26,582 bases of DNA, taken from Phycisphaerales bacterium. GTDB lineage: Bacteria; Planctomycetota; Phycisphaerae; Sedimentisphaerales; Anaerohalosphaeraceae. Below, piece after piece: positions 16,875 to 26,582 of the stretch. The notes beneath the pieces are model-generated. The model had not been told where the DNA came from. It ran no database searches and worked only from the letters and a program-made list of their open reading frames with translations. Location of the stretch: positions 1-26,582 of the forward strand of contig DRGS01000141.1 in NCBI GenBank assembly GCA_011053245.1. Direction: 5' to 3'. Numbering within the stretch: position 1 is the first letter of the stretch; each line of letters begins with the position of its first letter. Position numbers and translations under genes: made by a program.

Positions 16875-17465
16875 GTGCGACAGGAAAGTTCCGTTGAGTG
16901 AGGATTGGAAATGTAAACTTAACATAACATGAAACCTCAAGTTGAAACCCTGTGGAAGGAAGAATTCCACCCGGTAAGTGTCCCAACGGCCGGAAGCGAG
17001 TCTTGCGTGGTGTTTGCCTGATATTGGCAGGAGCAATCTGCACTGCGAAGCGTAGACAGCGGGTGCATAGGTGGCGTGATTGAACCGCGAAATTCGGATA
17101 ATCGTCAGGGCTGACGTTTTTAGAGTAGCGGAAAGCAACATCTGGTATTCTGAAAGGGAATTGAATATCAGATCTGGCCGAGGTCAAAGAGCAGAGCATG
17201 TGCACAAGGGTTTCCGGGAAACCTGTGAGATCCCATCATCTCCATGTCTGTGGGCTGGAAGCGCGCGCCGGCAGTACGCCGGACGTACATCGATAAAAAT
17301 GGCGGCAAGCAGCAACGACCGCTCGGGATTCCGACGGTTGAAGACAAAGTCTTGCAGCGTGGCGTTGCGATGATTCTTGAAGCGGTGTACGAGCAGGACT
17401 TCTACGACTGTTCGTATGGATTTAGTCCGAAACGGAGTCCCCATCAGGCATTGAAGTCATTGCGT
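16875..17465 (+). mobile_element. Group II intron, 5' part with truncated reverse transcriptase
   Basis: The element begins with the canonical group II 5' end GTGCGAC at 16875, followed by about 370 nt of structured, stem-rich sequence of domain I type, then a reverse-transcriptase fragment. The 3' part of the protein and domains V and VI are missing; the sequence changes abruptly near 17465 into the end of a cassette gene. It cannot splice or move. Intron class was not determined. Confidence 0.75.
17244..17465 (+). pseudogene. ltrA: Group II intron reverse transcriptase/maturase fragment
   Basis: The fragment reads [20 protein letters not shown], then [20 protein letters not shown], then [20 protein letters not shown] and LKSLRG. 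These match the RT1-RT2 region of bacterial group II intron proteins (the RPLGIPT.EDK and YGFRP.RS.H.A blocks). The usual protein is about 420-600 aa. Here the N-terminal ~60 residues, the YADD active-site region, the maturase X domain and everything after are absent. It is therefore inactive. The end at about 17465 abuts the cassette gene on the opposite strand. Confidence 0.9.
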
Positions 17466-17477
17466 GGGGTCTCTGGA

Positions 17478-17943
17478 TTAAAGACACGTGCAAATGATAC
17501 CAAACAACTTTTCGTCTCCCTTTTGAAACACGACACCTTTGTCCTTACAAAATACTTTAGGTTTTCTAGCACGCTTTGGTCAAGACCGTGGTGTGTCCCG
17601 CCACCACATGTATTGTTGTAATGAAGTTTCTCTCCTGCAGGAATCAGAGTAAGCTTTTCCTTAAATTCAGCTAAGCTTGTTGTCTTAATGATTTCTTTAT
17701 CCTTATACACGTACAATTCATAGCGAGGGACCGAATTCTCTGTAAAAGCATCATAGAAAATCATCATACCATAGCCATCTCTTAGTACGGCATGGCGTTT
17801 CTCTCCTCCAGCAGCCCATTCGTAAAAAATAAGATGCCCGTCAGCTGTTGTTGTACCTTGAGGTGTTCAGATGATGTGTTGGAACATCCGAGCGAAAGAA
17901 TTGGTAATAACATAAGCACTGCTAGGGCGATTCTATGTTTCAT
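17478..17943 (-). pseudogene. Small cassette-borne lipoprotein of unknown function, two frameshifts
   Basis: The N-terminus is a lipoprotein signal, MKHRIALAVLMLLPILSLGC, with the lipobox LSLGC, so the product would be anchored in a membrane. The downstream protein is read by shifting frame twice: after NTSSE to [73 protein letters not shown], and then to [16 protein letters not shown] and GIICTCL before TAA at 17478-17480. Each shift is repaired by adding one base (an A near 17872 and a T near 17551), which gives about 155 aa. The ATG at 17941-17943 has GGTGG upstream and lies only 14 nt after the conserved GTT of an attC-like site, as in integron gene cassettes. I do not recognise the family; the Cys and His pairs (CGGGTHHG) could bind metal. 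Confidence 0.6.
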
Positions 17944-18060: not shown

Positions 18061-18465
18061 ATGACAGAAGGAGTTTTTTCGTCCATTCTTGCAGTTCATC
18101 GCGCCAAAGGGTTTTTCGAGGACTGTGCATCACTGTATCCTGGAAAATTTTATTGCTTCACGATGGCAACTTTTGCGAAAGATTCGAACGAGCCTCTTTT
18201 TGATTACCCTCGAAAATCTTCAGACCAGACAATTGAATTACTTCGTAAGCATGTAGAAATTGGTGCACGTGGACTCAAAATACTTAGCGAGCTTGGACTC
18301 AAGTGCAAAGATGCAACTGGAAGGCTCATCAAAATCGACGACTCTGAATTATCGGATAAAAGTGCTGGCATTCTGGAGAGCTTTTTAAGCATGGGCAAAG
18401 GGAGTCTTATCTTTATTTTCTTACGAATCAAAGTCAGCCAACAGCGTTCGCCTAGCATTTACTAG
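18061..18465 (+). pseudogene. Amidohydrolase gene fragment
   Basis: The segment KGFFEDCASLYPGKFYCFTM, then ELLRKHVEIGARGLKILSEL and GLKCKDATGRLIKIDDSEL, matches the region before the first barrel histidine pair in a group of amidohydrolases (G.KGLK.....GL...D..GR.I..DDP.L). Similarity runs from about 18090 to 18357. The N-terminal HxH metal site and everything after the DDSEL block are missing, and the tail (GILESFLSMGKGSLIFIF) looks unrelated. It overlaps the 3' end of the toroid gene on the other strand at 18452. It may descend from the same kind of protein as the 5528-5662 remnant, but that is only a guess. Confidence 0.55.
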
Positions 18466-19426
18466 AGCTTATAGCCTCCTTACTCTCCAAAACTGCCACA
18501 GATTCCTGGAGCCAAACGTTCAAACCAGCTGCGTGGTCGACATGAATAAGGAGCTCATCCGACTCATCATCATAGCACCAGCTACCATCGGGAAGCTGTG
18601 TTTCCACAAGGAAGTCACACCACCGATACGCGGCTTCTTTTGCCTTCTCGTCACCAGTGAACAAGTATAATAGTGCCGCCCCAAGGGTGCTCTTTCCGCT
18701 TCCCCAGTAGGCGAAGCCGTCTTCGCGGCAGCGCAGTTTGAAATCTAAGAATTTACTTACATAATCCAGATAAGATTTGTCACCGGTCACCTGATACATT
18801 CTGCACATGAGTATCATGGGAAAACCCACCTCCCAATAGCACTGCATAGTCTTGGTTGAATCAATGAACTCTGCATTAGGATAATCTTTTTCGGTGGCAA
18901 GCTTACCGTCTTGGGTCATCTGGAAGTAGAACCTGTCCTCCCGAGGCTGCTGCTCAAGCATGCTGATGCAGCACTGAGCGACTTTCTTAGCTACTTCTAC
19001 ATTTCCATAATAAAGTGCCGAAACCCCCGTCCAAGCCGTAGCCAGCGACCGAATCAATTCGTCGCCTGCAAAATGCGGAAAGCCTCCGCATGGCGCCTGG
19101 CAAGAGAGGATAAATGACATCACTGGATAAGACAGGTCGAACCGTCCCAATTTATGGGCTCCCTGAAAAAACCAGGAATGCTTGTAGATGTCGCCGCTAA
19201 AATCCTTCAATTGACCGTCGGATTGCAGCGTGTTCTTCTTCACCCAGTTCAGGAGCCGTTGCGCCTCGCTGAAATGACCGAAAAGCTGCCATGTGTAAGC
19301 CTGCTTATGATAGGCATCTTTGACAAAACCCTCCCAGATGTAACCTCCATCAGGCTGCTGAAATTTTAGTGTGAATTCCACAGCCTTTAGGCCGGCATTT
19401 CGGTAGGCGTCCAGTTTATTTTTCAT
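18452..19426 (-). CDS. Alpha/alpha-toroid protein (terpenoid cyclase / six-hairpin glycosidase-like fold)
   Basis: This complete 324-aa protein is built of helical repeats, each with a Gly/Trp-rich turn: FQQPDGGYIWEGF, LQSDGQLKDFSGD, CQAPCGGFPHF, CREDGFAYWGSGKSTLG and TQLPDGSWCYDDESDELLIH. These QxxDGxW-like turns are typical of the alpha/alpha barrel shared by squalene/terpene cyclases, prenyltransferase beta subunits and several glycosidases and uronyl hydrolases. There is no signal peptide. The DxDD motif of class II cyclases is not evident, so a carbohydrate-active or unknown role is as likely. ATG 19424-19426 has AAGGAG about 9 nt upstream. It diverges from the flavoprotein operon and may share its control region. 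Confidence 0.7.
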   Translation of the reverse strand: MKNKLDAYRNAGLKAVEFTLKFQQPDGGYIWEGFVKDAYHKQAYTWQLFGHFSEAQRLLNWVKKNTLQSDGQLKDFSGDIYKHSWFFQGAHKLGRFDLSYPVMSFILSCQAPCGGFPHFAGDELIRSLATAWTGVSALYYGNVEVAKKVAQCCISMLEQQPREDRFYFQMTQDGKLATEKDYPNAEFIDSTKTMQCYWEVGFPMILMCRMYQVTGDKSYLDYVSKFLDFKLRCREDGFAYWGSGKSTLGAALLYLFTGDEKAKEAAYRWCDFLVETQLPDGSWCYDDESDELLIHVDHAAGLNVWLQESVAVLESKEAISSSKC

Positions 19427-19760
19427 TGTCTTCTGCTCCTTTTTTTCGATTTTCTTTTATTTTTCCCCAAAACGCACCGCACTCTTCACATTGATATAAC
19501 ACATCAATACTACACCGTCCATAACAAGTTTTGAGCACGTTAAGATTTATACACTTTGGCTTTTGCAACGTCAATTATTTTTTTAGGTCACTCCAAGAAC
19601 GGCCTCATCGAAATTTTTACAAAAATTACCGCGGAAAAGAATTTTTTTGACAGTTCAAGGTGGATTTTTATAAGGTCATTAGTGTCGTATGGAGAAAAGT
19701 ATGCTTTTAAAACGTTAAAATGGAAAATGTCAGATTAAATCTAAATGAAGGAACCATGTT
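19427..19760. other. Divergent control region between toroid gene and flavoprotein operon
   Basis: This AT-rich 334-bp gap separates two divergent genes and has no supported ORF. It contains the toroid ribosome-binding site (AAGGAG near 19436), a near-palindrome AATTTTTACAAAAATT at about 19613-19628, and the plus-strand promoter listed separately. No operator for a known regulator family could be named. Confidence 0.5.
19647..19674 (+). promoter_or_regulatory. Sigma70-type promoter for the flavoprotein operon
   Basis: TTGACA at 19647-19652 and TATAAG at 19669-19674 are 16 nt apart. The predicted start is about 80 nt before the ATG at 19761, leaving room for the AAGGA ribosome-binding site 9-10 nt before that ATG. 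Confidence 0.55.
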
Positions 19761-21800
19761 ATGTCTACCCGACGAAGTGGAAAAATGGTAGATCCCTGCC
19801 CGAGTCTAGATACTATCCATCCGGATGTTTTGAAGCAATTCCCCCATCTTTTCGAGCCTCTATCTATCGGTAACCTTTACATCCGAAACCGTGTCTTTAT
19901 CTCTGCTCACACTACCATGCTGGCAGAGAATGGAGGGCCGGGAGAGAAATTGATTGCTTTTCTGGAAGCTAAAGCAAAAGGTGGCGCTGGTCTAATTATC
20001 AGCGAAGCTGTTAATGCACATCCTTCCGGAAGCGAAAGTAAAAATGAACTGTGCAGCTGGGAGCCCTTCTTTCCCGAAGGTCTAAAGAAGCTGAGAGAAC
20101 GATTGGATTTGTACGGAACAATTTTTTTCGTTCAGCTCTTTCACAGTGGAGGTGGAGGAACCCATGCGGGTATTATGGAGAAAGGGCCTAATATCCAACC
20201 GAGCAATATATCATTTCTTTGCGAGGGATTGGTAGGCACATCTCATGCCTTAAGACTGGAAGAAGTAGAAGATTTAATCGAGGGTTTTGCAAAATCAGCC
20301 CTGATCTGTAAGGATAACGGGGCTCATGGAGTGGAAGTAGCAGCTGCGCATGGCTATTTAATTCACCGCTTCCTATCGCCTCTCCATAATCAGCGTATAG
20401 ATCGCTTTGGTGGAGATTTTAATAAACGCCTAACTTTTCTCAGGGAGATTCTCATTGCCATCCGAAAAAAAGTAGGCGGGGATTTCCCCATTGGAGTGCG
20501 CATCGGTTGTGATGATTTCATTCAAGAGAGTCTCTCCAACGACGATATCATAAAAATCTGTAAGACTCTTGAACAAGAAAAACTTGTAGATTTCTTTGAT
20601 ATTACGGGAAGTCACGAATTTATCGACAGAAGTCTTATCCATCATTACGCGGTCATGGACGATAAGCTTGGTCACATGGTACCCGAAGTTTCCAATATCC
20701 ATAGAGCTGTGTCTGTTCCCGTCCTCCATGCCGGGCGAATCATTAATCCTCGTCAGGCAGAGGATATATTAGCTGCAGGACATATTGATATGGCGGGTAT
20801 GACTCGCGCATCTATCGCTGATCCCAATTTTATAAAAAAAACTGTCGAGCAACGGGAAGCAGACATTATCTACTGTGTAGGTTGTGCTCAGGCCTGTATG
20901 GGGAGGGTGAATCGTAACCAGCATGTTACTTGTTTTCAAAATCCGTTCACGGGACGTGAACATGTTTGGGGAGAACTAACAAATACTACTAATAGGAAGA
21001 AAATCGTAGTCGTTGGTGGAGGACCTGCCGGTATGTCTTTTGCCTGGGTAGCCGCTTCAAGGGGTCATGAGGTTAATCTTTACGATGACCATCATGAACT
21101 AGGAGGACAGGTCCTTTTAGCAGAACAGCTACCCTTGTGTTTGGAGTTGGGCACGGTGGCGAGAAATCTTTCCCGTCAGGTTTATCAAGCCGGTGTCGAG
21201 GTTTATCTCAATACTTCTGCTACCAGTGAAACCGTTATTGCACAAAACCCTGATGAAGTTGTACTGGCCACAGGTTCTAAACCTTATCTACCTCAAAATG
21301 TGCAAGGGATAAATCAGAACCACGTTTTCACTTTCGAGCGAGCCTTTACTCAGCCAGATTTACTAGGGGACTCAGTCCTGTTGATTGATAACGACGGCCA
21401 TCAAAGAGGCGCCTCGACCGCTGCCTGGTTGATCAAAATCGGAAAAAAGGTTCAAGTCGTGACTGAATTTTCTCACATAGGTTCTAACTTTGAAATGTCT
21501 TTGCTAAGAGTGCGAATTTATCAGATTTTTTTCAAAAATAAAATCCCGCTTTATCCTCATTATCGGCTAATCGAAATTGGTCGCAAATCCGTATTTTTTA
21601 AAGACAATTATGCTGATACTGATCTTGAGATCAAAGGGATCGACAGCGTGGTGGTTCTCTATCCGCCTATTGCCCAAACCGAACTTGAAAAAGATTTACG
21701 AGCTTCAGGGAAAAAATTACATCTTATTGGAGATTGCCTAACACCAAGAAATATTGAATACGCCTCTTTTGTCGGAGCCAGACTGGGAAGGAGTATCTAA
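19761..21800 (+). CDS. Old Yellow Enzyme-type flavoprotein with [4Fe-4S] and FAD/NAD domains (TMADH / dienoyl-CoA reductase superfamily)
   Basis: This is a complete 679-aa oxidoreductase. Domain 1 (about 30-370) is an FMN-binding TIM barrel, with FEPLSIGNLYIRNRVF, then HGVEVAAAHGYLIHRFLSPL (189-208) carrying active-site His/Tyr candidates, and NQRIDRFGG (210-218). A [4Fe-4S] site follows: C372, C375, C379 and C391 (C-x2-C-x3-C-x11-C). Domain 3 begins with the dinucleotide fold VVVGGGPAGM (416-425) and ends with LHLIGDCLTPRNIEYA. This order matches trimethylamine/dimethylamine dehydrogenase, 2,4-dienoyl-CoA reductase and the DgcA-type N-demethylases. The next gene starts 3 nt after the stop, so the iron-sulfur protein is probably its electron acceptor. 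The substrate is unknown; an N-methyl compound is one possibility by analogy with DgcAB. Confidence 0.9.
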   Translation: MSTRRSGKMVDPCPSLDTIHPDVLKQFPHLFEPLSIGNLYIRNRVFISAHTTMLAENGGPGEKLIAFLEAKAKGGAGLIISEAVNAHPSGSESKNELCSWEPFFPEGLKKLRERLDLYGTIFFVQLFHSGGGGTHAGIMEKGPNIQPSNISFLCEGLVGTSHALRLEEVEDLIEGFAKSALICKDNGAHGVEVAAAHGYLIHRFLSPLHNQRIDRFGGDFNKRLTFLREILIAIRKKVGGDFPIGVRIGCDDFIQESLSNDDIIKICKTLEQEKLVDFFDITGSHEFIDRSLIHHYAVMDDKLGHMVPEVSNIHRAVSVPVLHAGRIINPRQAEDILAAGHIDMAGMTRASIADPNFIKKTVEQREADIIYCVGCAQACMGRVNRNQHVTCFQNPFTGREHVWGELTNTTNRKKIVVVGGGPAGMSFAWVAASRGHEVNLYDDHHELGGQVLLAEQLPLCLELGTVARNLSRQVYQAGVEVYLNTSATSETVIAQNPDEVVLATGSKPYLPQNVQGINQNHVFTFERAFTQPDLLGDSVLLIDNDGHQRGASTAAWLIKIGKKVQVVTEFSHIGSNFEMSLLRVRIYQIFFKNKIPLYPHYRLIEIGRKSVFFKDNYADTDLEIKGIDSVVVLYPPIAQTELEKDLRASGKKLHLIGDCLTPRNIEYASFVGARLGRSI

Positions 21801-21802
21801 TT

Positions 21803-23122
21803 ATGAATGAATTGCGAAAGAACTTGGGTGAAGCGAATCTCGAACTGGATCGCTGTATGAGTTGTGGATTATGCCTCGACGATTGTCCGACTTATACTAC
21901 GACCGGTCGCTCCACTTCTTCTCCCAGGGGTAGAATGAGGCTTATGATGAATCTCATTAAAGGAACGATAGATATCAACGATAAAGTTCCTTATACGAAC
22001 GTTAGTGTTCGCCACGAATTGGAAACCTGCTTGGGTTGTTTAGGATGTAATACATCTTGTCCTGCAGATATTCAGCATACAGATATGTTTGAATGCCTTA
22101 AAATGATGTTTTTTAAAAATAATCCCCAATATAAAGAACAATTGAAGGCTTTCTTAAAAGAAATGCCCATTGATAACCCCAAAAAATTCAGAACATTGAT
22201 GATTCTTCTATTTGTCGCCAAAAGGACCGGAGCGATTTGGATAACACAAAATACTCCTCTTAAATACCTATTGCCATCGACAAAAAGAAATATGGTTAAA
22301 CTCCTCGCCAAAAAGATCCCATATCGACCATCTTCACGGGTATTGTCTGGATTCAATCCCGCTATTGGTAAAAAGAAAATGAGAGTAGGGGTTTTCCTGG
22401 GTTGCATAAACGATCATATGTTTGCTGAAGTCAATATTGCTATGGTGCGGGTTTTGCAGCGCTTGGGTGCTGAGGTTCTTGTTCCAAAGACCGAAGCGTG
22501 CTGTGGTGCCATTCACCAGCACATGGGAGAACGTGAAATATCCAGTAAGATGGCCATTGAGAATTGTGAGCGTTTTTTGGATATGGGAGTCGACACCATC
22601 GCAGTTAATGCTGCTGGTTGTGGTTTGAGGGTCAAAGCATATACACGTGCTTTGCCCCATCATCCAGTGATTCAAAAGATTGGTCCCAAATTCAAAGACA
22701 TTCATGAAATTATTTGGGAGTTATTAGAAATGAATCCAGCTTTGAAGAATCAATGGATTTGGCCTGGTGGCAAAGAAAGGTATACCTATCACGATGCCTG
22801 CCATCTCGTACATGGACAAGGCATTAGTGACATTCCTCGGAAACTACTGCAATGCATTCAAGGCCTGGAATACATTTCTCTAAAAGAATCTACCATGTGT
22901 TGCGGTTCAGCGGGAACCTATAATATATTTCATCCTGAATTAGCACAAAAGATTCAATCGAGAAAAATTATGAACATCTTAGATACGAAGGCAAGCATTG
23001 TCGCTGTAGGTAATTCCGGGTGCTCGCTTCAAATTTTATCTGGACTAAAAGAGAAGGGTAAAAGTAACGTAAAATGCTACCATCCCGTTGAAATGATAGA
23101 CATAAGTTGGCGCAAGGTTTAA
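21803..23122 (+). CDS. GlcF-like iron-sulfur oxidoreductase subunit with two CCG domains
   Basis: This is a complete 439-aa protein. Two ferredoxin-type [4Fe-4S] motifs lie at C18-x2-C21-x2-C24-x3-C28 and C76-x2-C79-x2-C82-x3-C86. Two cysteine-rich CCG domains follow: first VGVFLGCINDHMF, TEACCGAIHQHMGE and NAAGCGLRVK, second YTYHDACHLVHGQGISDIPR, STMCCGSAGTYNIFHPELA and VGNSGCSLQI. Order, length and motif text match GlcF, the iron-sulfur subunit of glycolate oxidase (about 407 aa), and more loosely GlpC and heterodisulfide reductase subunits. The usual partners GlcD and GlcE are absent; instead it follows an OYE-type flavoprotein by 3 nt. It probably passes electrons from that enzyme toward quinone or another carrier at the membrane. 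Confidence 0.9.
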   Translation: MNELRKNLGEANLELDRCMSCGLCLDDCPTYTTTGRSTSSPRGRMRLMMNLIKGTIDINDKVPYTNVSVRHELETCLGCLGCNTSCPADIQHTDMFECLKMMFFKNNPQYKEQLKAFLKEMPIDNPKKFRTLMILLFVAKRTGAIWITQNTPLKYLLPSTKRNMVKLLAKKIPYRPSSRVLSGFNPAIGKKKMRVGVFLGCINDHMFAEVNIAMVRVLQRLGAEVLVPKTEACCGAIHQHMGEREISSKMAIENCERFLDMGVDTIAVNAAGCGLRVKAYTRALPHHPVIQKIGPKFKDIHEIIWELLEMNPALKNQWIWPGGKERYTYHDACHLVHGQGISDIPRKLLQCIQGLEYISLKESTMCCGSAGTYNIFHPELAQKIQSRKIMNILDTKASIVAVGNSGCSLQILSGLKEKGKSNVKCYHPVEMIDISWRKV

Positions 23123-23362: not shown

Positions 23363-23590
23363 ATGCGATTAAAAAATAAGAAATCACTAGTTAATCGAAC
23401 GTATCAAATTGATAATCATTAACACACCGAAGAATCCGACCGGTTACGTGGCTACGCAAGAGGATGTGGAAGCTATAGCAACCTTGGCAAAAAAGTACGA
23501 CCTTCTGGTTCTTTGTGATGAATCTTACGACCGCTTTATATACGATGATAAAAAACATATAAGCTTCGCATCCCTTCCCGATGTGGCTGG
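23363..23590 (+). pseudogene. Fusion scar: possible SDR start joined to class I/II aminotransferase fragment
   Basis: An AGAGGA site precedes ATG 23363, which reads MRLKNKKSLV. This resembles the first residues of many short-chain dehydrogenases (MRLKNKVALVTGA), but the frame ends 10 codons later. From about 23391, in another frame, the sequence reads ERIKLIIINTPKNPTG, YVATQEDVEAIATLAKKYDL, LVLCDESYDRFIYDD and KHISFASLPDV. This is the middle of a fold-type I aspartate-like aminotransferase: NPTG substrate-binding loop and D..Y PLP-binding residues. It stops before the PLP lysine (about 23585). Neither piece is functional. The aminotransferase identity is confident; the SDR identity is weak because so little remains. 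Confidence 0.65.
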
Positions 23591-24195
23591 GAAGGCTGCT
23601 ACGCTGGGGCCGAATTGTCCGTCGAACCTCCTGCCTCTCCCGAAAACCTCGTCCATCAGTAATGACAAGGGCTTACGACAAGTGATCTTTCCAGCACAAT
23701 CGGCAAGGATTCCGATTTTGCTGAATTGCCGATGCGATTATTTCACCTTATTTGGATCTTAGTGGGGGCCTTGTTTGTTCGCCGGGCCAGCTCAAGATCA
23801 GGAGGTGGTAAGAGTATGGACTACAAGAAGGCGTTGGATATAGGCCACGAACGGGCCGACCAGGCTTCTCGAAGAATTTTTCGCCGTTTTAGCGTCAAAG
23901 TGTTTATTGGCACCGCAGCAACAGTTAATAACATAAGCACCTAAAAAGTCCCGGCTGATTAATACCAAATGGTTACGCCACAAATTTGAACGTTCTCCAA
24001 AATGCCACTTTGATGTAACGCGGTACAAATCCCGCCCCCGCTAGTGCGTAAGGTCGGCTGACTTTGTGAGTTACGAAGACCGTCTGAAACGACGGAGCGA
24101 GATCAGGCCCATATCCCAAGCACTAAGATTGTTGTTTTCGAAGTACTTTCCATTGCCATGTTCTGCCGACAATAGAATCACAATGTTCGGGCCAG
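23591..24195. other. Mixed-composition intergenic region with hairpins
   Basis: No recognisable gene was found in about 600 bases apart from one small ORF listed separately. An 8-bp inverted repeat, ATCGGCAA (23699-23706) with TTGCCGAT (23726-23733), could be a terminator or mobile-element end. A smaller hairpin, CCGTC-N6-GACGG, lies near 24080-24096. The composition shifts from AT-rich to GC-rich at about 23590, which marks the edge of the aminotransferase fragment as a junction. Confidence 0.4.
23816..23944 (+). CDS. Small ORF with strong ribosome-binding site, unknown
   Basis: A 42-codon frame starts at ATG 23816, with AGGAGGT about 8-9 nt upstream, and reads MDYKKALDIGHERADQASRR followed by IFRRFSVKVFIGTA. 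I do not recognise it. The basic, helical N-terminus resembles the start of a larger protein, and the tail looks unlike it, so this may be the 5' end of a lost gene. The strong Shine-Dalgarno is the only support; there are no neighbours to place it. Confidence 0.3.
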   Translation: MDYKKALDIGHERADQASRRIFRRFSVKVFIGTAATVNNIST

Positions 24196-26582
24196 CTACT
24201 GGCGGGTCACGAGGAAGGTTTTAGTTATCGTATCCAGGCCGTCGGTGGCGGTGAGTTCTACTTCGAAGGTTCCAGTCAGGCCTGACGGGAGATTGATGGT
24301 CAACTGGCCGGCGGCGATGGCGCAAGTTACGCCGACTGGGACGATGACTTCTTGCTGATTTATCAATTTCCACGGATCGTCGTGATACAGGCTGTCAACC
24401 TGCCCGACCAGCCCGACGAGATACTGAAACACTTCGCCGGTCGGCAAGATGTAGTAGTACAGGCCTGTGTCGCTTTGCATCCACTTTCGGCCGGTCCCGA
24501 CGTGGTTGTCGTATTGCGGGAGGTACCATGCAAGGCCGAGTCGCTGGGTCAGCTCGTAGGCTGTAGCGCCAGTCGTACTTACTGAGGCGGTGTACGTAAT
24601 CGCATCGCCGTCGATATTCGTCGCGGAAACAGGCAATACCAGCGAGGTCTGACCGACAGTGACGGTCTGATCGTCGGGTACCTGCTGCCACACGGGAGCG
24701 GCATTGGTCACGGTTACGCTGAACGTGTCAGTCACCATCGCGGCCTCGTCCGTTGCGGTTACGTCCACCAGGAACGTGCCGACAAAGTCAGCAGGCGGTG
24801 TGATATCACAAGCTACGTTTCCGCTGTCCTGGCTTAAAGAAAAGCTCACAGCCGGCGTCGCGACAGGCTGCTGGTCGATCAGGCTTTGCGGATCGGCATT
24901 GTACGACGGGTCGACCTGCCCGACCTGCCCGTCGTGGTACTGGAAAACCTGGCCGCTCGGCAGGATGTAGTAGTACAGGCCTGTGTTGCTCTGCATCCAC
25001 TTCTCGCCCTGCCCCCAGATGTTATCATATTGCGGCAGATAGGTCGCCAGGCCCAGCTCAGTCTTGACCTCATATGCGTGAGCAGCCGTGGTGTTGAGAC
25101 TCGCGGTATAAGTCACATCATCGCCGTCCGCATCCGTTGTCGGGCCAAGGGTAACCGACAGCGGCAGATCATTATGTGGCACGGTCTGGTCGTCGATGGG
25201 CCCGATTACAGGTGCGGTATTATTAACTGTTACGAGGAAACTGCCGCTGATTTCCGCAGCCCCGTCGCTTGCCGAAACATTAACCTGGAATGTGCCTTCA
25301 AAGTCAACTGGCGGGTCGATTGTCAATTGGCCACTGGCTGTCGTGAACTGCACAGCCGGCGTCGCGACAGGCTGCTGGTCGATCAGCAATTGTGGATTGG
25401 CATTGTACGACGGGTCAACCTGCCCAACCAGCCCGCCGCCGTACTGGAAGACCTGGCCGCTCGGGAGGATGTAATAGTACAGTCCGGCGTCGCTCTGCAT
25501 CCACTTTTGGCCGAGGCCGCCGTGGTTGTCGTATTGGGGTAGATAAATCGTCAAGTCAAGTTCTGTCCGCAACGCATGGGCTTCCGCCCCGGCAGTGTTC
25601 ACGGCGAAGCTGTACGTAATATCGTCGCCGTCGGAGTCCGTCGCCGAGAGAGGCACGGTAAGCGTGTCGTCATTGTGTGACATCTCCTGATCCCCGGGGA
25701 GGTCAACCCACGTCGGCGGAATGTTCACAACCGTTACCTTAAAACTGCTGGAAACAGCAGCAGCCCCGTCGCTTACTGTCGCAATTACTTCGAATGTGCC
25801 GACAAAGTCAACTGGTATGTTGACCGTGAGCTGGCTGGTGGAATAGATATACGTGAACGTCACATCGGGGGATGCCAGCGGCACCTGGTCGATCAGCGAT
25901 TGTGGATTGGCATTGTACGACGGGTCAACCTGCCCAACCAGCCCGCCGCCGTACTGGAAGACCTGGCCACTCGGGAGGATGTAATAGTACAGTCCGGCGT
26001 CGCTCTGCATCCACTTTTGGCCGAGGCCGCCGTGGTTGTCGTATAGAGGTAGATAAATCGCCAAGTCAAGTTCTGTCCGCAACGCATAGGCTTCCGCCCC
26101 GGGGGTGTTCACGGCGAAGCTGTACGTAATATCGTCCCCAGCCGGATCGATCGCCGACAAGGGAACAACGTACGGGTCGTTGTGCGAGACCTGTAGATCA
26201 TTGGGCAACAAACTCCACACGGGACCCAGGTTATTGACCGTTACCGAGAAAGTGTCGACGACGGGAGCCGTTACGCTATCCGTAGCCGTCACTTGAACAT
26301 TGAACGAGCCGACGAAACTGATATCCGGTGAGATTGTCAGAACATTGCCATCCATGCTGACAAACTGAGCCAGGCCGGGGATTTCCGCAGGCCCGGCGTC
26401 AATAAATGATTGTGGATCGGCATAATATGACGTGTCAACTTGCCCTACCTGCCCACCGAAGTACTGAAAGATCTGGCCGGTCGGAAGGATGTAATAGTAC
26501 AGTCCAGCGTCGCTCTGCATCCACTTCTCACCCCGCCAGGAGGTGTTATCATACCACGGCAGATAGTTCGTCAGGCCGAGCC
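24196..26582 (-). CDS. Large surface repeat protein with Ig/cadherin-like domains and a Trp/Tyr-rich module, N-terminus outside window
   Basis: The open frame continues past the window edge, so at least 794 residues of a larger protein are present and the start is not visible. Five units of about 168-170 aa follow each other. Each unit has an Ig/cadherin-like strand set (DGDDITYSFAVNT to GTFEVIATVSDGAA, then SFKVTVVN) interrupted by a 60-residue module with TELDLAIYLPLYDN, KWMQSDAGLYYYILPSGQVF, QYGGGLVGQVDPSYNANPQS and LIDQ. The invariant KWMQS..GLYYYILP core is encoded near 26520, 26010, 25500, 24996 and 24480. It ends with TKTFLVTRQ and has no PEP-CTERM tail. DNA here is clearly more GC-rich than the catabolic cluster. 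The protein is probably exported and adhesive or structural; no enzyme motif is seen. Confidence 0.85.
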   Translation of the reverse strand, partial: LGLTNYLPWYDNTSWRGEKWMQSDAGLYYYILPTGQIFQYFGGQVGQVDTSYYADPQSFIDAGPAEIPGLAQFVSMDGNVLTISPDISFVGSFNVQVTATDSVTAPVVDTFSVTVNNLGPVWSLLPNDLQVSHNDPYVVPLSAIDPAGDDITYSFAVNTPGAEAYALRTELDLAIYLPLYDNHGGLGQKWMQSDAGLYYYILPSGQVFQYGGGLVGQVDPSYNANPQSLIDQVPLASPDVTFTYIYSTSQLTVNIPVDFVGTFEVIATVSDGAAAVSSSFKVTVVNIPPTWVDLPGDQEMSHNDDTLTVPLSATDSDGDDITYSFAVNTAGAEAHALRTELDLTIYLPQYDNHGGLGQKWMQSDAGLYYYILPSGQVFQYGGGLVGQVDPSYNANPQLLIDQQPVATPAVQFTTASGQLTIDPPVDFEGTFQVNVSASDGAAEISGSFLVTVNNTAPVIGPIDDQTVPHNDLPLSVTLGPTTDADGDDVTYTASLNTTAAHAYEVKTELGLATYLPQYDNIWGQGEKWMQSNTGLYYYILPSGQVFQYHDGQVGQVDPSYNADPQSLIDQQPVATPAVSFSLSQDSGNVACDITPPADFVGTFLVDVTATDEAAMVTDTFSVTVTNAAPVWQQVPDDQTVTVGQTSLVLPVSATNIDGDAITYTASVSTTGATAYELTQRLGLAWYLPQYDNHVGTGRKWMQSDTGLYYYILPTGEVFQYLVGLVGQVDSLYHDDPWKLINQQEVIVPVGVTCAIAAGQLTINLPSGLTGTFEVELTATDGLDTITKTFLVTRQ
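24360..26582 (-). repeat. Five tandem ~510-bp protein-coding repeats
   Basis: Modules lie at about 26400-26582 (partial), 25888-26076, 25378-25566, 24871-25062 and 24360-24549. Copies two and three are nearly identical over about 250 nt of DNA with only around eight differences, while the others differ more. This points to recent duplication or gene conversion. Confidence 0.85.

What the first reader, a model, noticed from the sequence alone, without database searches (positions are those of the whole stretch)
19761..23122. Two-gene redox operon: OYE-type flavoprotein plus GlcF-like protein without GlcD/GlcE
The flavoprotein carries FMN-barrel, [4Fe-4S] and FAD/NAD domains, and the partner starts 3 nt later with two ferredoxin motifs and two CCG domains. 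GlcF proteins normally serve a glycolate oxidase flavoprotein of a different fold. The nearest known logic is DgcAB-type demethylases, where a TMADH-like enzyme pairs with a CCG iron-sulfur protein, but that partner is longer. The pairing suggests an electron-transfer dehydrogenase or demethylase delivering electrons to quinone. A sigma70-like promoter lies 80 nt upstream.
Basis: partly seen in the sequence, partly recalled or inferred. Interest (0 to 1): 0.75.

Follow-up and report, generated by a model that had tools for sequence, protein, structure and literature searches.

The report
Yellow-enzyme and GlcF-type iron-sulfur pair
Two neighbouring genes in an unidentified, probably uncultured bacterium encode a three-cofactor flavoenzyme and an iron-sulfur protein of the type that normally serves glycolate oxidase; related sequences suggest that the two travel together as a separate, uncharacterised family, perhaps passing electrons from an unknown substrate to the respiratory chain.

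Summary
The genes are real: a 679-aa OYE/FadH/TMADH-type flavoprotein (19761-21800) and a 439-aa GlcF-type dicluster/CCG protein (21803-23122); no GlcD or GlcE is found in the window. Each belongs to a small clade of unnamed sources, set off in the listed hits by an identity gap (61% to 38% for the OYE). Six pairs of relatives share contig length and source and paired distances correlate, so linkage is probably not unique to this genome; adjacency itself was read only here. The OYE groups with none of five reference enzymes nor with DgcB-linked OYEs and misses the NCBIfam cut-offs. The partner is GlcF-like, far from DgcB. Of the 30 best Pseudomonadota GlcF relatives, 29 have GlcD/GlcE in the flanks and 0 an OYE. 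The OYE lacks FadH's NADPH-binding glycines but keeps four cluster cysteines, unlike 9 of 9 DgcB-linked OYEs. Best reading: an NAD(P)H-independent dehydrogenase passing electrons through the GlcF-type protein to quinone, in the manner of DgcAB but with another partner line. Substrate, direction and acceptor are inferred. New variant of a known kind. The promoter claim is not above chance.

The parts
19761..21800 (+). OYE/FadH/TMADH-type flavoprotein, 679 aa: FMN barrel 30-366, [4Fe-4S] motif C372/C375/C379/C391, FAD domain (GGGPAGM 419-425), second nucleotide fold without FadH's NADPH-binding glycines (DNDGHQRG 543-550)
21803..23122 (+). GlcF-type iron-sulfur protein, 439 aa: two CxxCxxCxxxC ferredoxin motifs (C18-C28, C76-C86) and two CCG domains
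   Evidence: AF2 model poor, pLDDT 66.4
21786..21793 (+). GGAAGGAG, Shine-Dalgarno-like, inside the end of the OYE gene, 9 nt before the GlcF-like ATG
   Evidence: sequence; function inferred
19647..19674 (+). TTGACA-16-TATAAG, promoter-like, 87 nt upstream of the OYE start; not above chance

Best explanation
A two-subunit, NAD(P)H-independent flavo-iron-sulfur dehydrogenase. The substrate is oxidised at FMN in the OYE barrel; electrons pass through its [4Fe-4S] cluster (and probably FAD) to the GlcF-type protein, and through that protein's clusters to the quinone pool. It works like DgcAB, but with a partner from the GlcF line instead of a DgcB. Shown: gene anatomy, two distinct clades, intact cofactor motifs, missing FadH-type NADPH motif, GlcF-line partner. 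Inferred: physical complex, direction, quinone, substrate.
For: Two genes 3 nt apart. Both proteins lie in clades with SH-aLRT 100. Distance correlation of six pairs r 0.957, reached by 4 of 720 permutations. FadH's GCGGIG is replaced by DNDGHQ in 16 of 16 clade rows, comparable to DDDHYY of the two histamine dehydrogenases; NCR, which also has no NADPH site, takes electrons from a one-electron donor (PMC6502838, passages). GlcF relatives have GlcD/GlcE in the flanks in 29 of 30 loci, that is, proteins of this type serve oxidising flavoenzymes. Of 16 candidate ligand cysteines of the GlcF-like protein, 15 are kept in 14 of 14 rows and C18 in 13 of 14.
Against: No substrate gene, transporter or ETF is in the two-gene operon. 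The OYE-type proton-donor Tyr is kept in 14 of 16 clade rows, which would also suit a reductase. Co-location elsewhere is inferred, not read, and for 6 of 12 OYE-clade entries on contigs of 4 kb or more no partner match is seen. The lack of the NADPH motif is shared by most of the 68 rows compared, so it is not specific to this pair. Distance correlation shows shared inheritance, not contact.
Confidence: 0.5

Rival explanations
1. Reductive direction: the GlcF-type protein collects electrons and feeds the OYE, which reduces an enoate, dienoyl-CoA, aryl-CoA or steroid-like substrate, as NCR or BaiCD do.
For: Nearest solved structure by sequence and fold is NCR, though FadH and TMADH follow closely in Z; second-best NCBIfam model is BaiCD; Y199, the OYE proton donor (NCR Y197 by the alignment and the passages), is kept in 14 of 16 clade rows. 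The partner's best NCBIfam hit is LdhH (201 bits), and TfrB, a fumarate reductase subunit, scores 165.
Against: Y199 is Phe in P0015 and P0016, which branch deepest in the clade; GlcF relatives with an identified neighbour sit with GlcD/GlcE; BaiCD cut-off not met (359 against 825).
Confidence: 0.22
2. A dimethylglycine/N-methyl demethylase of the DgcAB type that has exchanged DgcB for a GlcF.
For: Same gene order and logic as DgcAB (PMC12093977, passages).
Against: Separate clade from the 9 DgcB-linked OYEs; CxxC instead of CxxA and Tyr or Phe instead of His/Gln; no ETF, sarcosine-oxidase or Rieske gene among the 20 window ORFs scanned with Pfam.
Confidence: 0.12
3. A mycofactocin-system OYE with an unrelated GlcF gene next to it.
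For: Best NCBIfam hit is mycofact_OYE_2, 536 bits.
Against: Cut-off 793 not met, whereas P0041 scores 951; no mycofactocin gene among the 10 ORFs scanned with NCBIfam, in a window of only 26.6 kb; four Pseudomonadota OYEs, two with and two without a CCG partner, score alike (532-608), so the model is not specific here.
Confidence: 0.04
4. The adjacency is accidental and the proteins act apart.
For: Adjacency was read only in the window.
Against: Six shared contigs inferred, including the deep member P0015/P0139; congruent distances; 0 of 30 GlcF relatives in Pseudomonadota have an OYE in the flanks, so this neighbourhood is not common by chance.
Confidence: 0.08

Closest known systems
DgcAB dimethylglycine demethylase (with EtfAB/FixAB)
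   Same: OYE/TMADH-type flavoprotein directly followed by a ferredoxin-CCG iron-sulfur protein
   Different: DgcB-like proteins have open frames of about 640-710 aa and an N-terminal DUF3483 domain in the two tested, and score only 34-54 bits against the profile of the window partner's clade; the DgcB-linked OYEs have CxxA in the cluster motif (9 of 9) and form another clade
2-naphthoyl-CoA reductase (NCR)
   Different: 30% identity; window OYE has H50 and H197 where NCR has Thr and Val in the alignment; no GlcF-type partner is mentioned in the NCR passages read
FadH (2,4-dienoyl-CoA reductase)
   Same: domain order and CxxC-x3-C-x11-C cluster motif
   Different: no GCGGIG NADPH motif; no CCG gene in the 7-kb fadH region of E. 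coli K-12 shown
Trimethylamine/histamine dehydrogenase
   Different: no Cys for covalent FMN (T51; Ala in P0015 and P0016) where both histamine dehydrogenases have Cys; no ETF gene found beside it
GlcDEF glycolate oxidase, GlcF subunit
   Same: the partner is a GlcF homologue with GlcF-type ferredoxin and CCG motifs
   Different: no GlcD or GlcE in the window; below the GlcF cut-off (199 against 333 bits) and slightly nearer the C-terminal part of LdhH (201 bits, cut-off 800)

Membership tests
mycofactocin OYE_2 (TIGR03997) | score over the curated cut-off 793 | tested here: not met
   536 bits
BaiCD (NF041087) | score over the curated cut-off 825 | tested here: not met
   359 bits
FadH | NADPH-binding GxGGxG motif in the second nucleotide fold | tested here: not met
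   DNDGHQRG in place of GCGGIG
DgcA | groups with DgcB-linked OYEs in a tree | tested here: not met
   separate groups, both SH-aLRT 100; no experimentally characterised DgcA sequence was in the tree
DgcA | partner with DUF3483 (DgcB) | tested here: not met
   no DUF3483 in the partner; the DgcB-like proteins of L050 and L053 have it
Trimethylamine/histamine dehydrogenase | Cys for 6-S-cysteinyl FMN (recalled feature) | tested here: not met
   T51 where both histamine dehydrogenases have Cys; TMADH itself was not in that alignment
NCR | activity on naphthoyl-CoA | not testable with these tools
   30% identity only
GlcF (PRK11274) | score over the curated cut-off 333 | tested here: not met
   199 bits
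GlcF | genes for GlcD/GlcE beside it | tested here: not met
   none found in the window by tblastn
OYE superfamily with [4Fe-4S] and FAD domains | FMN barrel, four-Cys cluster motif, FAD domain, in that order | tested here: met
CCG/dicluster electron-transfer proteins | two ferredoxin motifs and two CCG domains | tested here: met

The most novel reading that the evidence does not exclude
A previously undescribed respiratory complex in uncultured, perhaps planctomycete-like bacteria: an OYE-type enzyme with a new substrate that reduces quinone through a GlcF-type protein, a pairing that arose independently of DgcAB.
Probability: 0.42. Interest if true: 0.62.

Novelty: new variant of a known kind. 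Interest (0 to 1): 0.48.

Why it matters
It would show that GlcF-type iron-sulfur proteins are exchangeable modules that can link quite different flavoenzymes, here an OYE instead of GlcD/GlcE, to the respiratory chain, and that OYE-type enzymes have been joined with CCG proteins of two different lines (DgcB and GlcF). It also defines a testable enzyme family; one pattern-based scan of 84,980 species genomes found no member.

Tried and rejected
Looking for the clade in species genomes: the one scan of genome contigs with A1, based on two short peptide patterns, found 3 remote loci and no clade member; one viral scan found none. Absence is limited to that sensitivity.

Divergent neighbour 18452-19426 as a third component: 204 hits, broad taxonomy. 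Weak linkage, left out.

Contig-length evidence: the six matches include P0021/P0140, both fragments (383 and 254 aa). One further length, 2637, is shared between a non-clade OYE and a clade GlcF from different sources, a chance match. Lengths are those of the longest contig of each 90% cluster.

Reading relatives' contigs directly was not possible, as metagenome scans are capped at 0. Whole-genome comparison outside Pseudomonadota was not possible either, as no genome is held for the window and no handle in another phylum was at hand; so OYE-GlcF pairs in other phyla are untested.

An HMM search of 41 loci with the GlcF-clade profile at 1e-5 found nothing; as it held no positive control I repeated the question by tblastn with one and by HMM with the window in the set. 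The GlcF-like model has pLDDT 66 and was not used for a fold search. A riboswitch near the pair: none at gathering thresholds. Papers on an OYE-GlcF pairing: 0 in the narrow searches; the library lacks most subscription journals.

Trees: both are quick trees with SH-aLRT and no bootstraps. In the OYE tree the deep order is open and long branches are flagged, so only the separateness of groups is used. In the GlcF tree E. coli GlcF and GlpC are long branches, and E. coli GlcF does not group with the other GlcD-adjacent GlcFs. Rows chosen: OYE, 16 of the 21 clade entries (5 shorter ones left out), 24 of the 99 further listed, 9 of the 14 loci with a weak ferredoxin hit in a flank, 14 others, 5 references; GlcF, 14 of 20 clade entries (6 shorter ones left out), 34 of 100 further listed (every third), 6 of 9 DgcB-like proteins, 4 plasmid GlcFs, 2 E. 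coli references. Against a neat split: other_L068 groups with the DgcB-linked OYEs but no CCG gene was found in its region; CxxA also occurs in 5 of the 24 further OYE rows, whose neighbours are unknown. In the alignment FadH's His lies one column off H50. H197 is Phe in 2 of 16 clade rows (P0007, P0012). R290, H295 and Y296 also occur singly or in pairs in some rows outside the clade (for example L046, P0033, P0038, P0114), so only their combination with H285 marks the clade.
Full report
The observation. The window holds an ORF of 679 aa at 19761-21800 and one of 439 aa at 21803-23122, both on the + strand. The first has Oxidored_FMN and Pyr_redox_2 domains, the second Fer4 and two CCG stretches. 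No GlcD- or GlcE-type domain appears among the 20 window ORFs scanned with Pfam, and tblastn with GlcD and GlcE finds nothing significant in the window.

A separate clade. Among the best 120 hits listed, the OYE has 21 at 61% or more (the window's own included), then the next is 38% (4679 hits in all, only the 7998 candidates sharing most words were scored). The GlcF-like protein shows the same: 20 listed, all at 61% or more but one at 44%, then 38%. None of these clade entries carries an organism name. A scan of 84,980 species genomes found no clade member. In a tree of 68 OYEs the 16 clade rows form one group (SH-aLRT 100, stem 1.18), apart from 9 DgcB-linked OYEs (100), the histamine-dehydrogenase/6-HPON-oxidase group (100), FadH and NCR.

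Do the genes travel together? Of 20 OYE-clade and 20 GlcF-clade entries with a contig length, six pairs share both length and source: 8053, 8682, 8860, 14351, 31954, 49978 bases. Among 99 x 99 non-clade entries no length is shared. Short lengths can coincide by chance (2637; 1281 and 2037), but these six are 8 kb or longer and agree in source. Six of the 12 OYE entries on contigs of 4 kb or more are matched; for the other six no partner shows, which may reflect clustering at 90% or a real absence. Distances among the window pair and five matched pairs correlate, r 0.957, reached by 4 of 720 permutations; without the outlier 0.974, 2 of 120. This speaks for shared inheritance, not for contact.

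Comparison with other genomes. In 299 Pseudomonadota genomes, 83 have an OYE match at 1e-60 or better, at 29-36% identity (at most three candidates per genome were scored). Of the 30 loci returned, with flanks of about 1.5 kb, none has a GlcF-clade-like neighbour, and 14 have a weak ferredoxin-motif hit (E up to 1) in a flank. Nine of these 14 were fetched at length: 9 of 9 have an OYE followed by an open frame of about 640-710 aa that matches the GlcF profile weakly; the two tested are DUF3483-Fer4-CCG. In PMC12093977 (passages read) dgcA encodes an NADH:flavin oxidoreductase-domain protein, dgcB an Fe-S protein with DUF3483, fixAB follow, and a dgcA deletion fails to grow on dimethylglycine. 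Of 11 regions around other OYE hits, 0 have a match to the GlcF profile in the fetched flanks of about 3 kb or more. In reverse, 115 of 299 genomes have a GlcF match at 1e-30; of the 30 best loci, 29 have GlcD/GlcE in the 1.5-kb flanks and 0 have an OYE. On plasmids I looked at 4 of 396 records with a GlcF relative: two beside a GlcD-type oxidase (Metabacillus, Parageobacillus), one beside two FAD-linked oxidases (Rhodococcus), and one (Priestia) with no listed gene in the 1.4 kb before it in a gene table known to be incomplete. Of 2270 records with an OYE relative I looked at 3: no CCG gene is listed beside the OYE.

The partner is not a DgcB. In a tree of 60 CCG proteins the window clade (14 rows, SH-aLRT 100) lies among GlcF-type proteins, while six DgcB-like proteins sit on a branch of length 8.99. 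The clade profile scores four plasmid GlcF relatives at 277-312 bits and nine DgcB-like proteins at 34-54. So OYE-type enzymes have been joined with CCG proteins of two lines, either by two separate pairings or by replacement of one partner (inference from the two trees).

Chemistry read from residues. FadH's NADPH motif GCGGIG is DNDGHQ in 16 of 16 clade rows, comparable to DDDHYY in the histamine dehydrogenases; most of the 68 rows lack a FadH-like motif. NCR has no NADPH site and was reduced only by low-potential one-electron donors, not by NAD(P)H (PMC6502838, passages). All four cluster cysteines are kept in 16 of 16, whereas in 9 of 9 DgcB-linked OYEs the second is Ala, as also in 5 of 24 further rows. 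The proton-donor Tyr is kept in 14 of 16 and is Phe in two; in DgcB-linked OYEs it is His (8) or Gln (1). H197 is kept in 14 of 16. H285, R290, H295 and Y296 are together invariant in the clade and may bind an anionic substrate (speculation).

Mechanism. The simplest reading is a dehydrogenase without NAD(P)H: substrate to FMN, to the [4Fe-4S] cluster, to the GlcF-type protein, to quinone. The quinone step rests on what GlcF-type proteins are taken to do (established knowledge, recalled, not tested). The reverse direction, a reductase fed through the GlcF-type protein, is not excluded; the kept Tyr and the NCR-like fold favour it, the Phe in two deep members speaks against a conserved ene-reduction. 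A demethylase is possible but not favoured.

Host. The window carries PEP-CTERM, dockerin, Gfo/Idh/MocA and H-X9-DG pilin-like genes, and the few named relatives of the neighbour 18452-19426 include Planctomycetota, but also Aerophobetes, Clostridiaceae and Zipacnadales MAGs. That PEP-CTERM and H-X9-DG genes point to planctomycete-like hosts is recalled. The host is not established.

Noticed in passing
window 16962-17193 (+) and 17244-17621 (+): A group II intron (Rfam RF02005, 121 bits) followed by a short reverse-transcriptase fragment of 125 aa (RVT_1, 24.6 bits, under its cut-off of 29.6); the maturase frame looks broken.
   Followed up: partly
window 23409-23762 (+): A class I/II aminotransferase fragment (Pfam E 2.9e-12, profile positions 149-205 of 361) just after the pair; looks like a remnant.
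   Followed up: partly
window 24196-26520 (-): A 774-aa repetitive Ig-like protein in a stretch of 57% GC, against 41-48% in the other 2-kb steps of the window.
   Followed up: no
window 18452-19426 (-): A 324-aa divergent neighbour with weak alpha-toroid/GH88-like matches; 204 hits, of which 5 of the 120 listed carry an organism name (Planctomycetota twice, Aerophobetes, Clostridiaceae, Zipacnadales).
   Followed up: partly
L049-L057: DgcB-linked OYEs replace the second cluster cysteine with Ala in 9 of 9, so the cluster of DgcA-type enzymes may be bound unusually.
   Followed up: partly
window 19761-21800, residue 13: An N-terminal extension before the barrel with an invariant Cys (C13, 16 of 16 clade rows); the rows outside the clade lack this stretch.
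   Followed up: no
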